55,122 bases of DNA from Lentisphaeria bacterium. GTDB lineage: Bacteria > Verrucomicrobiota > Lentisphaeria > Victivallales > Victivallaceae. The position numbers were made by a program, and so were the translations under genes. Of this stretch, positions 22,740-27,933 are shown piece after piece. Within the stretch, counting starts at the first letter, position 1. Each line of letters opens with the position of its first letter. Below the pieces are notes generated by a model that saw nothing but the letters and a program-made list of their open reading frames with translations, ran no database searches and was not told the DNA's origin. Where the stretch lies: positions 1 through 55,122 of the forward strand of contig JAFSTC010000035.1 in the NCBI GenBank assembly GCA_017450705.1. Direction: 5' to 3'.

Positions 22740-22747
22740 ATATGAAA
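22740..22747. repeat. Target-site duplication, left copy (ATATGAAA)
   Basis: The 8-bp sequence ATATGAAA directly abuts the left terminal inverted repeat. The same 8 bp abut the right terminus at 23136-23143. Confidence 0.85.
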
Positions 22748-23135
22748 GGCTCTGTTCCCCATACGGGGCGGTAACGGGAGAAGAATGTCTCGACGGCACA
22801 CTTTGCCCACGGGAGGCGAGGCGGTCGCCGCCTCTTCTCGCAGACCGAATGTGAATGAACCGGCAATCGCGAGATTGCCGGATGCGCTCAAGTTTTTTGA
22901 GCGCAGATGAACGGAGGTCGAGCATTAAGCCGCGAGAGAGGTCGGGCGCAGCCCGGCCGAACGCAGGCGCGCAACTTCAGAAGGGAACTACACCGAGGTC
23001 CGCGCTCGCCGCGGGAAGGAACAAAAGGAGGGGGCCGGGGAGGGAAAACCGCGGAGCGGTTGTCTCTCTCCCGGCTGGACGGCCCGCGTTCAAACGGCGG
23101 CTTGCGTTAAACCTACCCATGTGGGGAACAGAGCC
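22748..23135. mobile_element. 388-bp non-autonomous transposable element (MITE-like), ISL3-like ends
   Basis: The ends are GGCTCTGTTCCCCA (22748-22761) and its exact reverse complement (23122-23135); similarity continues imperfectly for another 10-15 bases. Identical 8-bp direct repeats ATATGAAA flank both ends, the mark of transposition. Termini starting GGCTCT and 8-bp duplications are features known for the ISL3 family, so an ISL3-type transposase acting in trans is the best guess. No transposase frame is present inside. The interior carries at least five hairpins: 22818-22834, 22860-22881, 22883-22905, 22940-22958 and 23047-23061. It landed just after the kinase terminator, harming neither neighbour. 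Confidence 0.8.
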
Positions 23136-23143
23136 ATATGAAA
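23136..23143. repeat. Target-site duplication, right copy (ATATGAAA)
   Basis: Exact match to the 8 bp at 22740-22747, immediately outside the right terminal inverted repeat. From here to 23270 I see no gene or structured element. Confidence 0.85.
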
Positions 23144-23270: not shown

Positions 23271-23295
23271 AACGCCGACGGGGAGCCGGGGCGTT
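23271..23295 (-). terminator. Possible terminator of the second AraC gene
   Basis: On the minus strand AACGCC (ending at the stop codon) pairs with GGCGTT, and T-rich sequence (GACGATTTTTGAAATTTTT) follows. The stem is only 6 bp with a 13-base loop that could pair further. Confidence 0.45.
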
Positions 23296-24149
23296 CACTT
23301 CCGGCTGGCGCTGCGGTACTCCGTCGGCGATCGGCCCGTGGTCCGGCGGAAACAGTTCGAGAAGGAGTACAGCGAGGAGAACCCCAGTTCCGCCGCGATC
23401 TCCCCGACGCTCAGCGTCGTCCCCGACAGGCGGTTTTTCGCCCGGTCGATGCGCAGGGTTTTGATGTATTCCTCCAGCGTGATGAAGTACTTTCCCTTGA
23501 AGGCCGCCCCCAGATAGTTGGGGGAGTACCCCAGTTCCGCCGCCATCTGCTGGATGTTGAAGGGGCGGCCGAGATTTTGGTAGATGTAGCCGTTGATCTT
23601 TTCCAGCAGCCGGTGTTTGCCCGGCACGGGACGGAGGACCGTTTCCGCGTTCCGGCAGCGGTCCAGCAGACCGCAGACCAGCGTCGCGGTCATGCCCGAA
23701 AGATAATCAGCCTTCCACGCGGCCGCGCTCTCTTCGCATTCGTTCCAGATGCGCGCCATGCGGGCCAGAAGTTCCACCTCCTCCGGCCGGGCGGTCATCA
23801 GCTGGTTGCGCAGACGGTAGACGGTCTCGGGCGGATCCCATTCGGCCCGGACGTAGAGCCAGCGCCGGGGCAGCTCCAGATCGAGGTAGCAGTGCATCTG
23901 CCAGGGGAACATCAGCAGGATGTTCCCCGGCCGGAAATCGAAGAAATCCTCGTCCAGACACACGGTCCCGGACCCCCGGACGCAGTAGATGACGAAAAAC
24001 GCGTCGTTCTGATGAAAGAACCCCGCCCGGGGATTGATCTTGTGCCGGTCGTAAACCAGCACGTTGTCCGGCAGTCCGGAGGAACTTCTCCGCACGCCCG
24101 AGGAGATGCTCCGGTAACGTCTCGGAACGGGTATTTCCGGATATTCCAC
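23295..24149 (-). CDS. AraC-family regulator with cupin-like sensor (divergent from GH16 operon)
   Basis: A 284-residue regulator. The N-terminal part (about 30-150) looks like an AraC-type cupin: YDRHKINPRAGFFHQNDAFF, VRGSGTVCLDEDFFDFRPG and MFPWQMHCYLDLE. Residues about 185-280 hold the DNA-binding domain: FNIQQMAAELGYSPNYLGAA and LSVGEIAAELGFSSLYSFSN, then FRRTTGRSPTEYR. The start is GTG at 24149, with AGAGGA nine bases before it; no better ATG lies upstream. The gene diverges from the pseudopilin/GH16 operon and its -35 box lies only 4 bp from the operon's -35 box, so it is the likely glycan-responsive switch for that operon. Confidence 0.93.
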   Translation of the reverse strand: MEYPEIPVPRRYRSISSGVRRSSSGLPDNVLVYDRHKINPRAGFFHQNDAFFVIYCVRGSGTVCLDEDFFDFRPGNILLMFPWQMHCYLDLELPRRWLYVRAEWDPPETVYRLRNQLMTARPEEVELLARMARIWNECEESAAAWKADYLSGMTATLVCGLLDRCRNAETVLRPVPGKHRLLEKINGYIYQNLGRPFNIQQMAAELGYSPNYLGAAFKGKYFITLEEYIKTLRIDRAKNRLSGTTLSVGEIAAELGFSSLYSFSNCFRRTTGRSPTEYRSASRK

Positions 24150-24301: not shown

Positions 24302-25066
24302 ATGAACAGGGGAAAAACCGGGACGGGACGGAAAGCGCCGGGCGGGTCCGCTTTCACTTTGATCGAGTTACTGGTCGTGATCGCCATCATCGCCATCTTG
24401 GCGAGCATGCTGATGCCTGCGCTGAGCCAGGCCCGGGACAGGGCGCGGAACACCCTGTGCGAAAACAATCTGAAACAGGTTTCCCTGGCCCTTGCATCCT
24501 ATCTGTCGGACAACGACAACTGGTACTGGCACAACGTGGGGACCTTTTCCCAGTATTCCCATGCGACCCTTTTTTCGCGCCTTTCCTCCTACGTCGGCGG
24601 GCCCACGTACAAGCAGATCTCGTCGGACGCGACCTACCGGAACGACGCGCTGATGCCCAAGGTCTTCTTCTGCCCCACGCTCCAGGGGCAGCGCGGCCAT
24701 GAGGCGACCCAGCCCTACGGGCTCTGTCTTGCGGCCGACGGCTTCAAGCTCGGCGTCATCCGGAAAGTGACCAATCACAATCCGCCGCAGGCGGGGGACA
24801 AATATATCTCCATTGACCGGATGTTCATCGGCGGAGACACCTTCTGCGCCACGGAGAGCACCCGCTGGAAGAGCAGTCAGCTCTCCGGCAACTCCACCGG
24901 CGTGGGGCTGGTGGACATCCGGCACGGCCAGTGCGCCAACATGCTGAACGGATCCTTGAGACTCATCCGCTTCGATGTGGGCCAAAAACTGCAGTACTAC
25001 GTTCTCACCAACGGCCTCTACCGCTCCGTGGCCAAGTGGTGCGTGAATCAGGTCGTGACCCAGTAG
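24302..25066 (+). CDS. Type II secretion-like pseudopilin (DUF1559-type prepilin)
   Basis: A 254-residue protein with the classic prepilin N-terminus: a basic leader ([17 protein letters not shown]), then [20 protein letters not shown] with Glu at +5. The residue before the cleavage site is Ala17, not the usual Gly. The body ([30 protein letters not shown]) is typical of the pseudopilin-like proteins abundant in PVC bacteria. A degenerate H-X9-DG-like ending ([11 protein letters not shown]) is present. It would sit in the inner membrane or a pilus-like fibre with the C-terminal domain outside. It opens the GH16 operon, which suggests a role in binding or presenting the same substrate; this is inference. 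RBS GAGAGG. Confidence 0.9.
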
Positions 25067-25083
25067 CCCCCGGAGCCCCCGTC

Positions 25084-26475
25084 ATGCCGTTTTTGCCGAA
25101 ATTTCCGGCGGTCTGCGCCGCCGCGTTCCTTGCCGTCGCGTGTTTCGCCGACAAATACGTTCCCGCCGCCCAACACGTCGACAAGCGGATGGACATCGAG
25201 ATCAACAACCTGCTGGACAATCCCTATCTCAAGGAGGGCGGCAAAAACGTTCCCCCCGCCCAATGGGACATGGCTCAGCCTCCCGAGGGCGGCTTTTCCT
25301 GCGCCGCCGGGCTGAAATACCGGGCGTTCAAGCTCACCGCCGTCCCCGGCCAGGCCGTTGTGATCGGTCAGGTGGGGCTGTACCTCGTTCCCGGCGAAAA
25401 GTACCGCGTCAGCGGTTACATCCGCGGCGAGAACTTCGAAGGAACGGGAGAAGTCGGCGTCATCGGCAAGGCCTTCCGGAACGTCAAAGGGTTCCGCTTC
25501 AACACCAGGAAGGTCAAGGACCAGTGGTACTACTTCGAGGTGGATTTCGTCCACGAGCTGCGGGACATCTGCCGGTTCGTCATGTACGTCCAGAAGGGCA
25601 GTTCCGGCAGCGTCGTCATCGAGCGGCCCACCCTCGAACCCCTGACCGAAAAGGGCCTCAAGGGCTCCAAACGCCTGCTGGCCAACGACGATTTCGAAGC
25701 CCGTTACGCCAAGGCCAAAGCCGAGGGATTCCGCAGCGGTCCGCCCTCGGACGATTACGAACTGGTCTGGCACGACGAGTTCGACGGCGACAAGCTGGAT
25801 ACCTCCAAATGGGTCAATTACGTCCTCGACTACCGCAAGAAGCGCAATCAGATGATCGATACGCCTCATTACGCCCGGTTGAACGGAAAGGGCCAGCTGG
25901 AACTGGTCAACGAGTTCAGGGACGGCATCTTCTACACGCCCTTTCCGCATACCCGCACGACCTTCATGCCCACTTTCGGCTACTTCGAGTGCCGCTTCAA
26001 GCTGCACAAAGAGGACATGCTCAACGCCACGTTCTTCCTGCTGCCGCCCGACAGGAAGCGGCAAGTCGACGTGGGGCCCGAGAAAAACGGCTATGAGATC
26101 GACATCATGGAGTGCATCCTGCCCTCGATGGATCAAATCTCCCAGACCACCCACTACAAGGCCTTCGACGGCAAGAAGTACACGATCCTGAGCGGCGGCA
26201 CCATCGCCCGGCGGATGCCCGGTTTGTCACAGGGCTGGCACACCGTGGGCTTCGAGTGGACGCCCGACAATTACCGCTTCTTCATCGACGGCGTCGAAAG
26301 TTACGCCCTGAACAAAGCGTACCACCCCATCGCCCATGCGCCGCTTTACATGATCCTCTCTTTCGAGGTCCACAGGACTTTCGCGGCGAAAATCGCCAAA
26401 GAAGGCAAGCCGTGGAAGTCGTCGGTCTACAGCATCGACTACGTCCGCGTGTATCAGAAGAAAAAGTCCCGGTGA
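25084..26475 (+). CDS. GH16-family endo-glycanase, tandem paralog 1
   Basis: A 463-residue secreted enzyme. A signal peptide (FPAVCAAAFLAVACFAD) is followed by an accessory beta-domain (about 40-200) and a GH16 catalytic domain (about 220-460) starting YELVWHDEFDGDKLDTSKW. The active-site signature is E338-I-D340-I-M-E343: E338 is the expected nucleophile and E343 the acid/base. GH16 enzymes cleave beta-1,3/1,4 glucans or galactans, and some cut mucin O-glycans; the sequence alone does not choose. Start chosen at 25084 because it gives the signal peptide, 17 bases after the pseudopilin gene. It is the most divergent of the three tandem copies. Confidence 0.88.
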   Translation: MPFLPKFPAVCAAAFLAVACFADKYVPAAQHVDKRMDIEINNLLDNPYLKEGGKNVPPAQWDMAQPPEGGFSCAAGLKYRAFKLTAVPGQAVVIGQVGLYLVPGEKYRVSGYIRGENFEGTGEVGVIGKAFRNVKGFRFNTRKVKDQWYYFEVDFVHELRDICRFVMYVQKGSSGSVVIERPTLEPLTEKGLKGSKRLLANDDFEARYAKAKAEGFRSGPPSDDYELVWHDEFDGDKLDTSKWVNYVLDYRKKRNQMIDTPHYARLNGKGQLELVNEFRDGIFYTPFPHTRTTFMPTFGYFECRFKLHKEDMLNATFFLLPPDRKRQVDVGPEKNGYEIDIMECILPSMDQISQTTHYKAFDGKKYTILSGGTIARRMPGLSQGWHTVGFEWTPDNYRFFIDGVESYALNKAYHPIAHAPLYMILSFEVHRTFAAKIAKEGKPWKSSVYSIDYVRVYQKKKSR

Positions 26476-26485
26476 GTTTCCGTGT

Positions 26486-26505
26486 ACCGGCGTTTTTCCG
26501 CCGGT
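26486..26505 (+). other. Hairpin in the spacer between GH16 copies 1 and 2
   Basis: ACCGGCG (26486-26492) pairs perfectly with CGCCGGT (26499-26505) around TTTTTC. The following DNA is A-rich, not T-rich, so it is more likely an mRNA processing or stability element than a full terminator. The spacer between copies 2 and 3 (27934-28015) is homologous and retains a shorter CGGCG/CGCCG version. Confidence 0.5.
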
Positions 26506-26547
26506 CCCGGACGGGATTTCCGAAATAAAAAAACAAGGGAAAGAGCA

Positions 26548-27933
26548 ATGAGACGTTTTCACCGCATCACTCTGGTCTGCGCCGTTTTGTTCCTCGCCGC
26601 GGCGTGCCGGGCCGACAGGTACATCCCGGCGTCGAAGCACGTCGACAAGCGCATGGACATCGAGATCAACAACCTGCTGGACAACCCCTATCTCAAGTAC
26701 GGCAAAAGCGTTCCGCCGGAACAGTGGAACATGAACCCCGTGCCCGAAGGCGGCTTCGAGTACGTCACCGGGGTGAAGTACCGGGCCTTCAAGCTCAAGG
26801 CCGTGCCGGATCAGGCCGTGGTGATCGGTCAGGTGGGGCTCTATCTCGTCCCCGGCGAGAAATACCGCGTCAGCGGCTACATCCGCGGCGAGAACTTCAC
26901 GGGCAGCGGCGAGATCGGCGTCATCGGCAAGGCCTTCCGCGACGTCAAGGGCTTCCGCTTCAATACGAAGAAGGTCAAGGACAAGTGGTACTATTTCGAG
27001 GTCGATTTCGTCCACGAACTGCGGGACATCTGCCGGTTCGTCATGTACATCAAGAAGGGCGCCACGGGCAGCGTCGTCATCGAGCGGCCCACCCTCGAAC
27101 CCCTGACGGAGAAGGGCCTCAAGGGCTCCAAACGGCTGCTGGCCAATGACGACTTCGAAGCCCGCTACGCCAAAGCCAAAGCCGCGGGCTTCCGCAGCGG
27201 CCCGCCCTCGGACGACTACGAGCTGGTCTGGCATGACGAGTTCGACGGCGACAAGCTGGACACCACCAAATGGGTCAACTACGTTCTGGACTACCGCAAA
27301 AAGCGCAAGACCATGGTCGACACGCCCCGCTGCGCCCGGCTGAACGGCAAGGGGCAGATGGAACTTGTCCAAGAGTTCGAGGACGGTATTTTCTACGGCG
27401 GCTATCCCCACACCCGCGAGACCTTCATGCCGACCTACGGTTACTTCGAGTGCCGTTTCAAACTGCACAAGGAGGATATGATCAACGCCGCCTTCTGGCT
27501 CATGCCCCGCAACCGGAATCTGGAGGTCGATCTGGGGCCGGAGAAGAACGGTTACGAGATCGACATCATGGAGTGCATCGTGCCCTCGATGAATCAGATC
27601 TCCCAGACGACCCATTATCAGGCCTTCGACGGCAAAAAATACACCATCAAGAGCGGCGGCACCATCGCCCGCAGGATGCCCGGCTTCAACGAGGGCTGGC
27701 ACACCGTCGCTCTGGAGTGGACCCCCGACGGCTGCCGCTTCTTCATCGACGGCGTCGAAAGCTACGTCCTGAGCAAAGAATACCACCCCGTCTCCCATGC
27801 GCCGCTCTACATCATCCTCTCCCTCGGCGTCCACAGGAATCTCGCGAAAAAGATCAGGGAAGAGGGCAAGCCGTGGAGATCCTCGGTCTTCACGGTCGAC
27901 TATGTCCGCGTGTATCAGAAGAAGAAGCGGTGA
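26548..27933 (+). CDS. GH16-family endo-glycanase, tandem paralog 2
   Basis: A 461-residue secreted enzyme: signal peptide (RITLVCAVLFLAAACRAD), accessory domain and GH16 catalytic domain with E337-I-D339-I-M-E342. It differs from paralog 3 at only 9 of about 106 aligned residues in the accessory region, so this pair split recently. Differences from paralogs 1 and 3 cluster near VQEFEDGIFYGGYPHTRETF, next to the expected substrate cleft, and could tune specificity. Start at 26548 follows AAGGGAAAGAG and gives a proper signal peptide; upstream in-frame residues would be spacer. Confidence 0.88.
   Translation: MRRFHRITLVCAVLFLAAACRADRYIPASKHVDKRMDIEINNLLDNPYLKYGKSVPPEQWNMNPVPEGGFEYVTGVKYRAFKLKAVPDQAVVIGQVGLYLVPGEKYRVSGYIRGENFTGSGEIGVIGKAFRDVKGFRFNTKKVKDKWYYFEVDFVHELRDICRFVMYIKKGATGSVVIERPTLEPLTEKGLKGSKRLLANDDFEARYAKAKAAGFRSGPPSDDYELVWHDEFDGDKLDTTKWVNYVLDYRKKRKTMVDTPRCARLNGKGQMELVQEFEDGIFYGGYPHTRETFMPTYGYFECRFKLHKEDMINAAFWLMPRNRNLEVDLGPEKNGYEIDIMECIVPSMNQISQTTHYQAFDGKKYTIKSGGTIARRMPGFNEGWHTVALEWTPDGCRFFIDGVESYVLSKEYHPVSHAPLYIILSLGVHRNLAKKIREEGKPWRSSVFTVDYVRVYQKKKR

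What the first reader, a model, noticed from the sequence alone, without database searches (positions are those of the whole stretch)
22740..23143. Complete small mobile element with 14-bp inverted ends and perfect 8-bp target duplication
GGCTCTGTTCCCCA and its exact complement close a 388-bp segment, and ATATGAAA abuts both ends. This is direct sequence proof of a transposition event by an element with no transposase. End sequence and 8-bp duplication fit ISL3-type mobilisation (family knowledge).
Basis: partly seen in the sequence, partly recalled or inferred. Interest (0 to 1): 0.7.

Follow-up and report, generated by a model that had tools for sequence, protein, structure and literature searches.

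The report
Jumping mini-element carrying a folded cassette
This is a 388-base jumping DNA element with no enzyme of its own, one of a family spread through a group of uncultured Lentisphaeria bacteria; it carries a 155-base cassette whose folded shape evolution has preserved while its letters changed, and what that shape does is not known.

Summary
The ends are really ~25-bp imperfect repeats (21 of the first 25 bases match). It is a MITE-type, transposase-less transposon. Its genome has five further copies covering at least 98% of it and many partial ones; the terminal repeat recurs in 23 of 137 genomes of the order (up to 87 sites). Of 48 closed elements (70-611 bp) examined, 25 have perfect 8-bp duplications, against 0.8% in a cross-element control. 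The ISL3 attribution is not supported: no ISL3 transposase in this genome or in the six richest genus members, and the two ISL3 copies whose ends could be read have a different terminal repeat. IS6, IS1595, IS256 and IS4/IS5 searches gave no parent either; the mobilising enzyme is unidentified. In relative G008 all 39 sampled loci run from the repeat into this cassette in one orientation. So: an ordinary MITE mechanism, an unusual conserved structured cargo.

The parts
22740..22747 (.). left target duplication ATATGAAA
22748..22772 (+). left terminal inverted repeat GGCTCTGTTCCCCATACGGGGCGGT (14 bp perfect, ~25 bp imperfect)
   Evidence: family consensus GGCTCTGTTCCCNANANGGGNAGGT
22773..22815 (+). 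left arm between repeat and cassette
   Evidence: conserved among TIR-bearing copies in alignment A1
22816..22970 (+). structured cassette: hairpin, branched domain closed by GACC/GGTC with two hairpins, then a GCC..GGC-closed hairpin; short helices separated by opposed GA/GA steps
   Evidence: covariance model hit E 1e-32 (this copy was among the 30 sequences the model was built from); covariation counts
23034..23075 (+). 3' hairpin GCCGGGGAGGGAAAACCGCGGAGCGGTTGTCTCTCTCCCGGC; similar hairpins follow the cassette in other species
   Evidence: read from the sequence, alignment A1, relatives' copies
23111..23135 (-). right terminal inverted repeat (reads GGCTCTGTTCCCCACATGGGTAGGT on the - strand)
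23136..23143 (.). right target duplication ATATGAAA
20380..22704 (+). left neighbour gene (ORF start as listed): protein kinase with a Cache-type sensor region; the first ATATGAAA begins 35 bp beyond its stop
23295..24149 (-). right neighbour gene, convergent: AraC-type regulator

Best explanation
[quoted passage not shown] A DDE-type transposase supplied in trans, family unidentified, binds the ~25-bp GG-ended terminal repeats and inserts the element by an 8-bp staggered cut into AT-rich DNA, here the spacer between two convergent genes. Shown: ends, duplication, many copies, no transposase. Inferred: the enzyme and its cut. Inside, just after one end, it carries a ~155-nt cassette selected to fold as a single strand on the + strand, most likely as RNA in transcripts that read through it. 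Shown: compensatory base changes across species and among copies within one genome. Inferred: that the folded molecule is RNA, and that it helps the element or its host tolerate or use the insertion. The cassette also exists without these repeats, so it is a module only partly tied to this transposon.
For: Exact ends and 8-bp duplication. Copies in the genome. Terminal repeat in 20 of 34 genus genomes and 23 of 137 order genomes, reversed control near zero. 25 of 48 closed elements with perfect 8-bp duplications, 91.5% A+T, cross-element control 0.8%; three further G008 elements read by eye. No protein family in its ORFs. Cassette: 18 junction pairs on 30 sequences, 97.6% paired, 60 double-change cells versus 19 shuffled, covariation 0.295 versus 0.127 (0/500), slid partners 0.02-0.08; column pair 30/111 takes all four Watson-Crick types. 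G008: all 39 loci read (L222-L260) run from the repeat into the cassette in one orientation.
Against: No autonomous element with these ends was found in the sites listed or in the loci read, so the mobilising enzyme is inferred. No empty site was examined. No sigma-70-like promoter was found inside the element, so transcription of the cassette is undemonstrated. Core-only copies in this genome have no visible target duplication, so how the cassette moves on its own is unexplained.
Confidence: 0.85

Rival explanations
1. The element is mobilised by an ISL3-family transposase.
For: GG-starting ends and 8-bp duplications are compatible with ISL3 (family knowledge); ISL3 transposase matches occur in 10 of 34 genus genomes.
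Against: None in this genome nor in G002, G005, G008, G011, G016, G020; the two readable ISL3 copies have GGTTCTTCGACGGTTTGTGAC-type ends.
Confidence: 0.07
2. It is mobilised by an IS6-like or other GG-end, 8-bp-duplication family (IS6, IS1595, IS256, or a new family).
For: IS6 members have GG-beginning terminal repeats and make 8-bp duplications (PMC7986276); the start GGCTCTGTT resembles IS6 ends as I recall them (memory).
Against: PF13610 (IS6) in none of the 22 genus genomes searched, this one included; PF12762 (IS1595) not in this genome; PF00872 (IS256) only a 96-aa fragment here, preceded at ~120 bp by a different end-like sequence, AGGCTGCTTGAAAAGCG; a decayed IS4/IS5-type PF01609 transposase near such an end (L199) lies beside a ~206-bp element with its own pair of ends.
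Confidence: 0.45
3. The cassette's structure matters as single-stranded DNA (during transposition or replication) rather than as RNA.
For: Opposed GA/GA steps and hairpins can form in DNA as well; no promoter seen.
Against: A U-G pair kept in 25 of 30 sequences on this strand (column pair 36/106) fits RNA slightly better; the cassette is present in genomes without these ends, so it is not needed only for this transposition.
Confidence: 0.25
4. The cassette is just decaying palindromic MITE filler and the covariation is an alignment artefact.
For: MITE transcripts often form stable stem-loops (PMC10969869).
Against: Covariation exceeds 500 of 500 shuffles, and slid partners keep only 18-44% of pairs versus 97.6%; junction motifs and GA steps are kept across species.
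Confidence: 0.05

Closest known systems
Prokaryotic MITEs (e.g. QMITE1/QMITE2 of Coxiella burnetii)
   Same: under 500 bp, terminal inverted repeats, target duplications, no transposase, many copies, stem-loop-rich interior (PMC10969869; PMC5896051)
   Different: G+C 63% in the cassette where MITEs are typically AT-rich; carries a cassette with cross-species compensatory covariation; parent transposon unidentified
ISL3-family insertion sequences
   Same: 8-bp duplications, GG-starting ends (family knowledge)
   Different: the two readable genus ISL3 copies have GGTTCTTCGACGGTTTGTGAC ends; no ISL3 transposase in this genome
IS6-family insertion sequences
   Same: 8-bp duplications, GG-beginning ends (PMC7986276)
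   Different: no IS6 transposase in 22 genus genomes searched; 25-bp imperfect repeat rather than about 14 bp
Rfam bacterial RNA families, including Acido-Lenti-1 (RF01687), which is known from Lentisphaerae (PMC2864571)
   Same: structured RNA-like element in Lentisphaerae
   Different: no Rfam 15 family matches the element region up to E 1; in the eight relatives' loci scanned only a tRNA reached its gathering score

Membership tests
MITE | short (<500 bp) and without a transposase gene | tested here: met
   388 bp; ORFs have no Pfam match
MITE | terminal inverted repeats | tested here: met
   14 bp perfect, ~25 bp imperfect
MITE | flanking target-site duplication | tested here: met
   ATATGAAA both sides; 25 of 48 elements in loci of this and related genomes
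MITE | dispersed multiple copies with different flanks | tested here: met
MITE | an autonomous element sharing its ends | tested here: inconclusive
   none seen in the G000, G008, G011, G016 site lists or the loci read; draft assemblies break at repeats
MITE | empty site in a relative | not tested
ISL3-derived element | ends match an ISL3 element of the same lineage | tested here: not met
   the two ISL3 copies with readable ends differ (L148, L149)
ISL3-derived element | ISL3 transposase available in the genome | tested here: not met
   PF01610 absent from G000
ISL3-derived element | 8-bp target duplication | tested here: met
   not specific to ISL3
IS6-derived element | IS6 transposase in the lineage | tested here: not met
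   PF13610 absent from the 22 genus genomes searched
known Rfam RNA family | covariance-model match | tested here: not met
   element region scanned to E 1 without a match; eight relatives' loci; whole window at gathering scores, tRNA only

The most novel reading that the evidence does not exclude
A previously undescribed structured RNA class of uncultured Lentisphaeria, dispersed as a repeat through genus genomes and in some species built into a MITE in fixed orientation, so that a selfish element depends on, or benefits from, a conserved folded RNA.
Probability: 0.45. Interest if true: 0.7.

Novelty: new variant of a known kind. Interest (0 to 1): 0.5.

Why it matters
Small transposase-less elements are usually treated as decayed leftovers whose inside does not matter. 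Here the inside keeps one folded shape across species and among copies of one genome while the letters change, which means something selects for it. That makes the function of a MITE's cargo directly testable, and it gives a covariance model for a repeat of these bacteria that no Rfam family covers.

Tried and rejected
ISL3, IS1595 and IS256 as source in this genome; IS6 in 22 genus genomes; IS4/IS5 (PF01609) in 12 repeat-rich genomes. Autonomous partner: site lists of G000, G008, G011 and G016 examined for pairs at insertion-sequence distance, loci from these and other genomes scanned for closed pairs and ORFs inside, 39 G008 loci with the repeat read inwards: all MITE-sized or cut by contig ends. 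One 611-bp candidate (L192) has unequal flanks and was not followed. Repeat in viral contigs: none. Cassette patterns in viral contigs: one match, inside phage-type coding genes, judged chance. Element in phages and plasmids: none. The end sequence in papers: only unrelated hits. Boundaries of core-only copies: unit defined (-144 to about +156 around the anchor) but no duplication seen by eye.

Full report
Observation. The finding is exact: 388 bp at 22748-23135, GGCTCTGTTCCCCA and its reverse complement at the ends, ATATGAAA on both sides. The ends are imperfect inverted repeats of about 25 bp (21 of 25 identical). The element sits 35 bp after a protein kinase gene and ahead of a convergent AraC-type regulator gene. 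Its ORFs have no Pfam domain.

Copies in the same genome. The window lies in a 3.97-Mb draft genome of 117 contigs; the only named match in the genome-contig collection is a goat-rumen Lentisphaeria genome. A DNA search gave 30 partial or complete matches; five further copies cover at least 98% of the query and others are cut by contig ends. L002 has its own perfect duplication, TTGAAAAA; a shorter, 155-bp relative (L072) has TTTCAAAA. Several copies (L008, L009, L011, L012, L014) match only the inner ~300 bp and have no recognisable terminal repeats.

The family. The repeat pattern has 34 sites in this genome, 89 in G002, 71 in G020, 61 in G016 and 46 in G008 at up to 3 mismatches, with reversed controls near zero; at up to 2 mismatches it occurs in 23 of 137 genomes of the order. 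Among 48 closed elements in fetched loci of this and related genomes, lengths 70-611 bp, 25 have perfect 8-bp duplications with 91.5% A+T; pairing the left flank of one element with the right flank of another gives 19 of 2256. Three more G008 elements (L228, L229, L246) have matching 8-mers, compared by eye. This is the pattern of transposition with an 8-bp stagger into AT-rich DNA.

Mobiliser. ISL3 is not supported: PF01610 is absent here and from G002, G005, G008, G011, G016 and G020, though ten of the 34 genus genomes have a match. Ends could be read for two ISL3 copies, L148 and L149, and they have GGTTCTTCGACGGTTTGTGAC-type sequence. IS6 (22 genus genomes), IS1595 and IS256 (this genome), and IS4/IS5 (12 genomes) searches also gave no parent. 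Draft assemblies break at repeats, so absence is weak evidence and the enzyme stays open.

The cassette. The inner region recurs through the genus, including in genomes with no or one terminal-repeat site (G010, G007, G015: none; G018, G032: one). Aligned copies share short helices separated by opposed GA steps. For 18 junction pairs on 30 sequences, 97.6% of cells pair, 60 cells change on both sides and the covariation score is 0.295 against 0.127 in shuffles (0 of 500) and 0.02-0.08 with slid partners; the whole 46-pair structure behaves likewise. The structure was drawn by me on one of these sequences, which favours it in the slid control, and the sequences are related, which favours it in the shuffle control; the number of distinct pair types and of species argues against either being the whole explanation. 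A covariance model finds one copy in the window, 22816-22970. Among the terminal-repeat loci of G016, G011, G118 and G073 that were scanned with it, none matched, while G008 loci matched. No Rfam family matches.

G008. The 39 fetched G008 loci L222-L260 all contain the G008 form of the repeat at 0 or 1 mismatch, and in every one a repeat runs on into the cassette in the same orientation; L234 departs from it midway, many are cut by contig ends, and L248 also shows the other, right-end form. Two complete G008 elements (L212, 447 bp; L214, 497 bp) have perfect duplications. Here the cassette is a built-in part of the transposon, as in this window.

Interpretation. A MITE with an unidentified parent and an unusual structured cargo. 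RNA is the likelier form because one U-G pair is kept on this strand, but no promoter is seen inside and no expression data were available. An IS110-type transposase gene follows an interrupted cassette copy in the named genome (L078; the Pfam match is below the curated cut-off).

Noticed in passing
L078 5046-5540: Cassette copy interrupted after GAGCATTAAG, followed by an IS110-type transposase start (PF01548 below cut-off).
   Followed up: partly
L012 and L008 (G000 C29, C115): Core-only copies with GAGATGA-type repeats upstream and shared flanks, which look like a tandem duplication.
   Followed up: no
L192 277-887 and L093: A 611-bp stretch between such ends with unequal flanks, sharing its left ~200 bp with L093; possible remnant of a longer element.
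   Followed up: partly
L085, L092, L154, L169: Another repeated sequence, GGCTGTTGCAAAA, occurs in relatives near these elements.
   Followed up: no
window 24931-27933: Two adjacent, similar long ORFs on the + strand, which look like tandem paralogues.
   Followed up: no
L084: Repeated NIAHFRKTSNHN in the translation suggests a CRISPR-like array beside a terminal repeat in G022.
   Followed up: no
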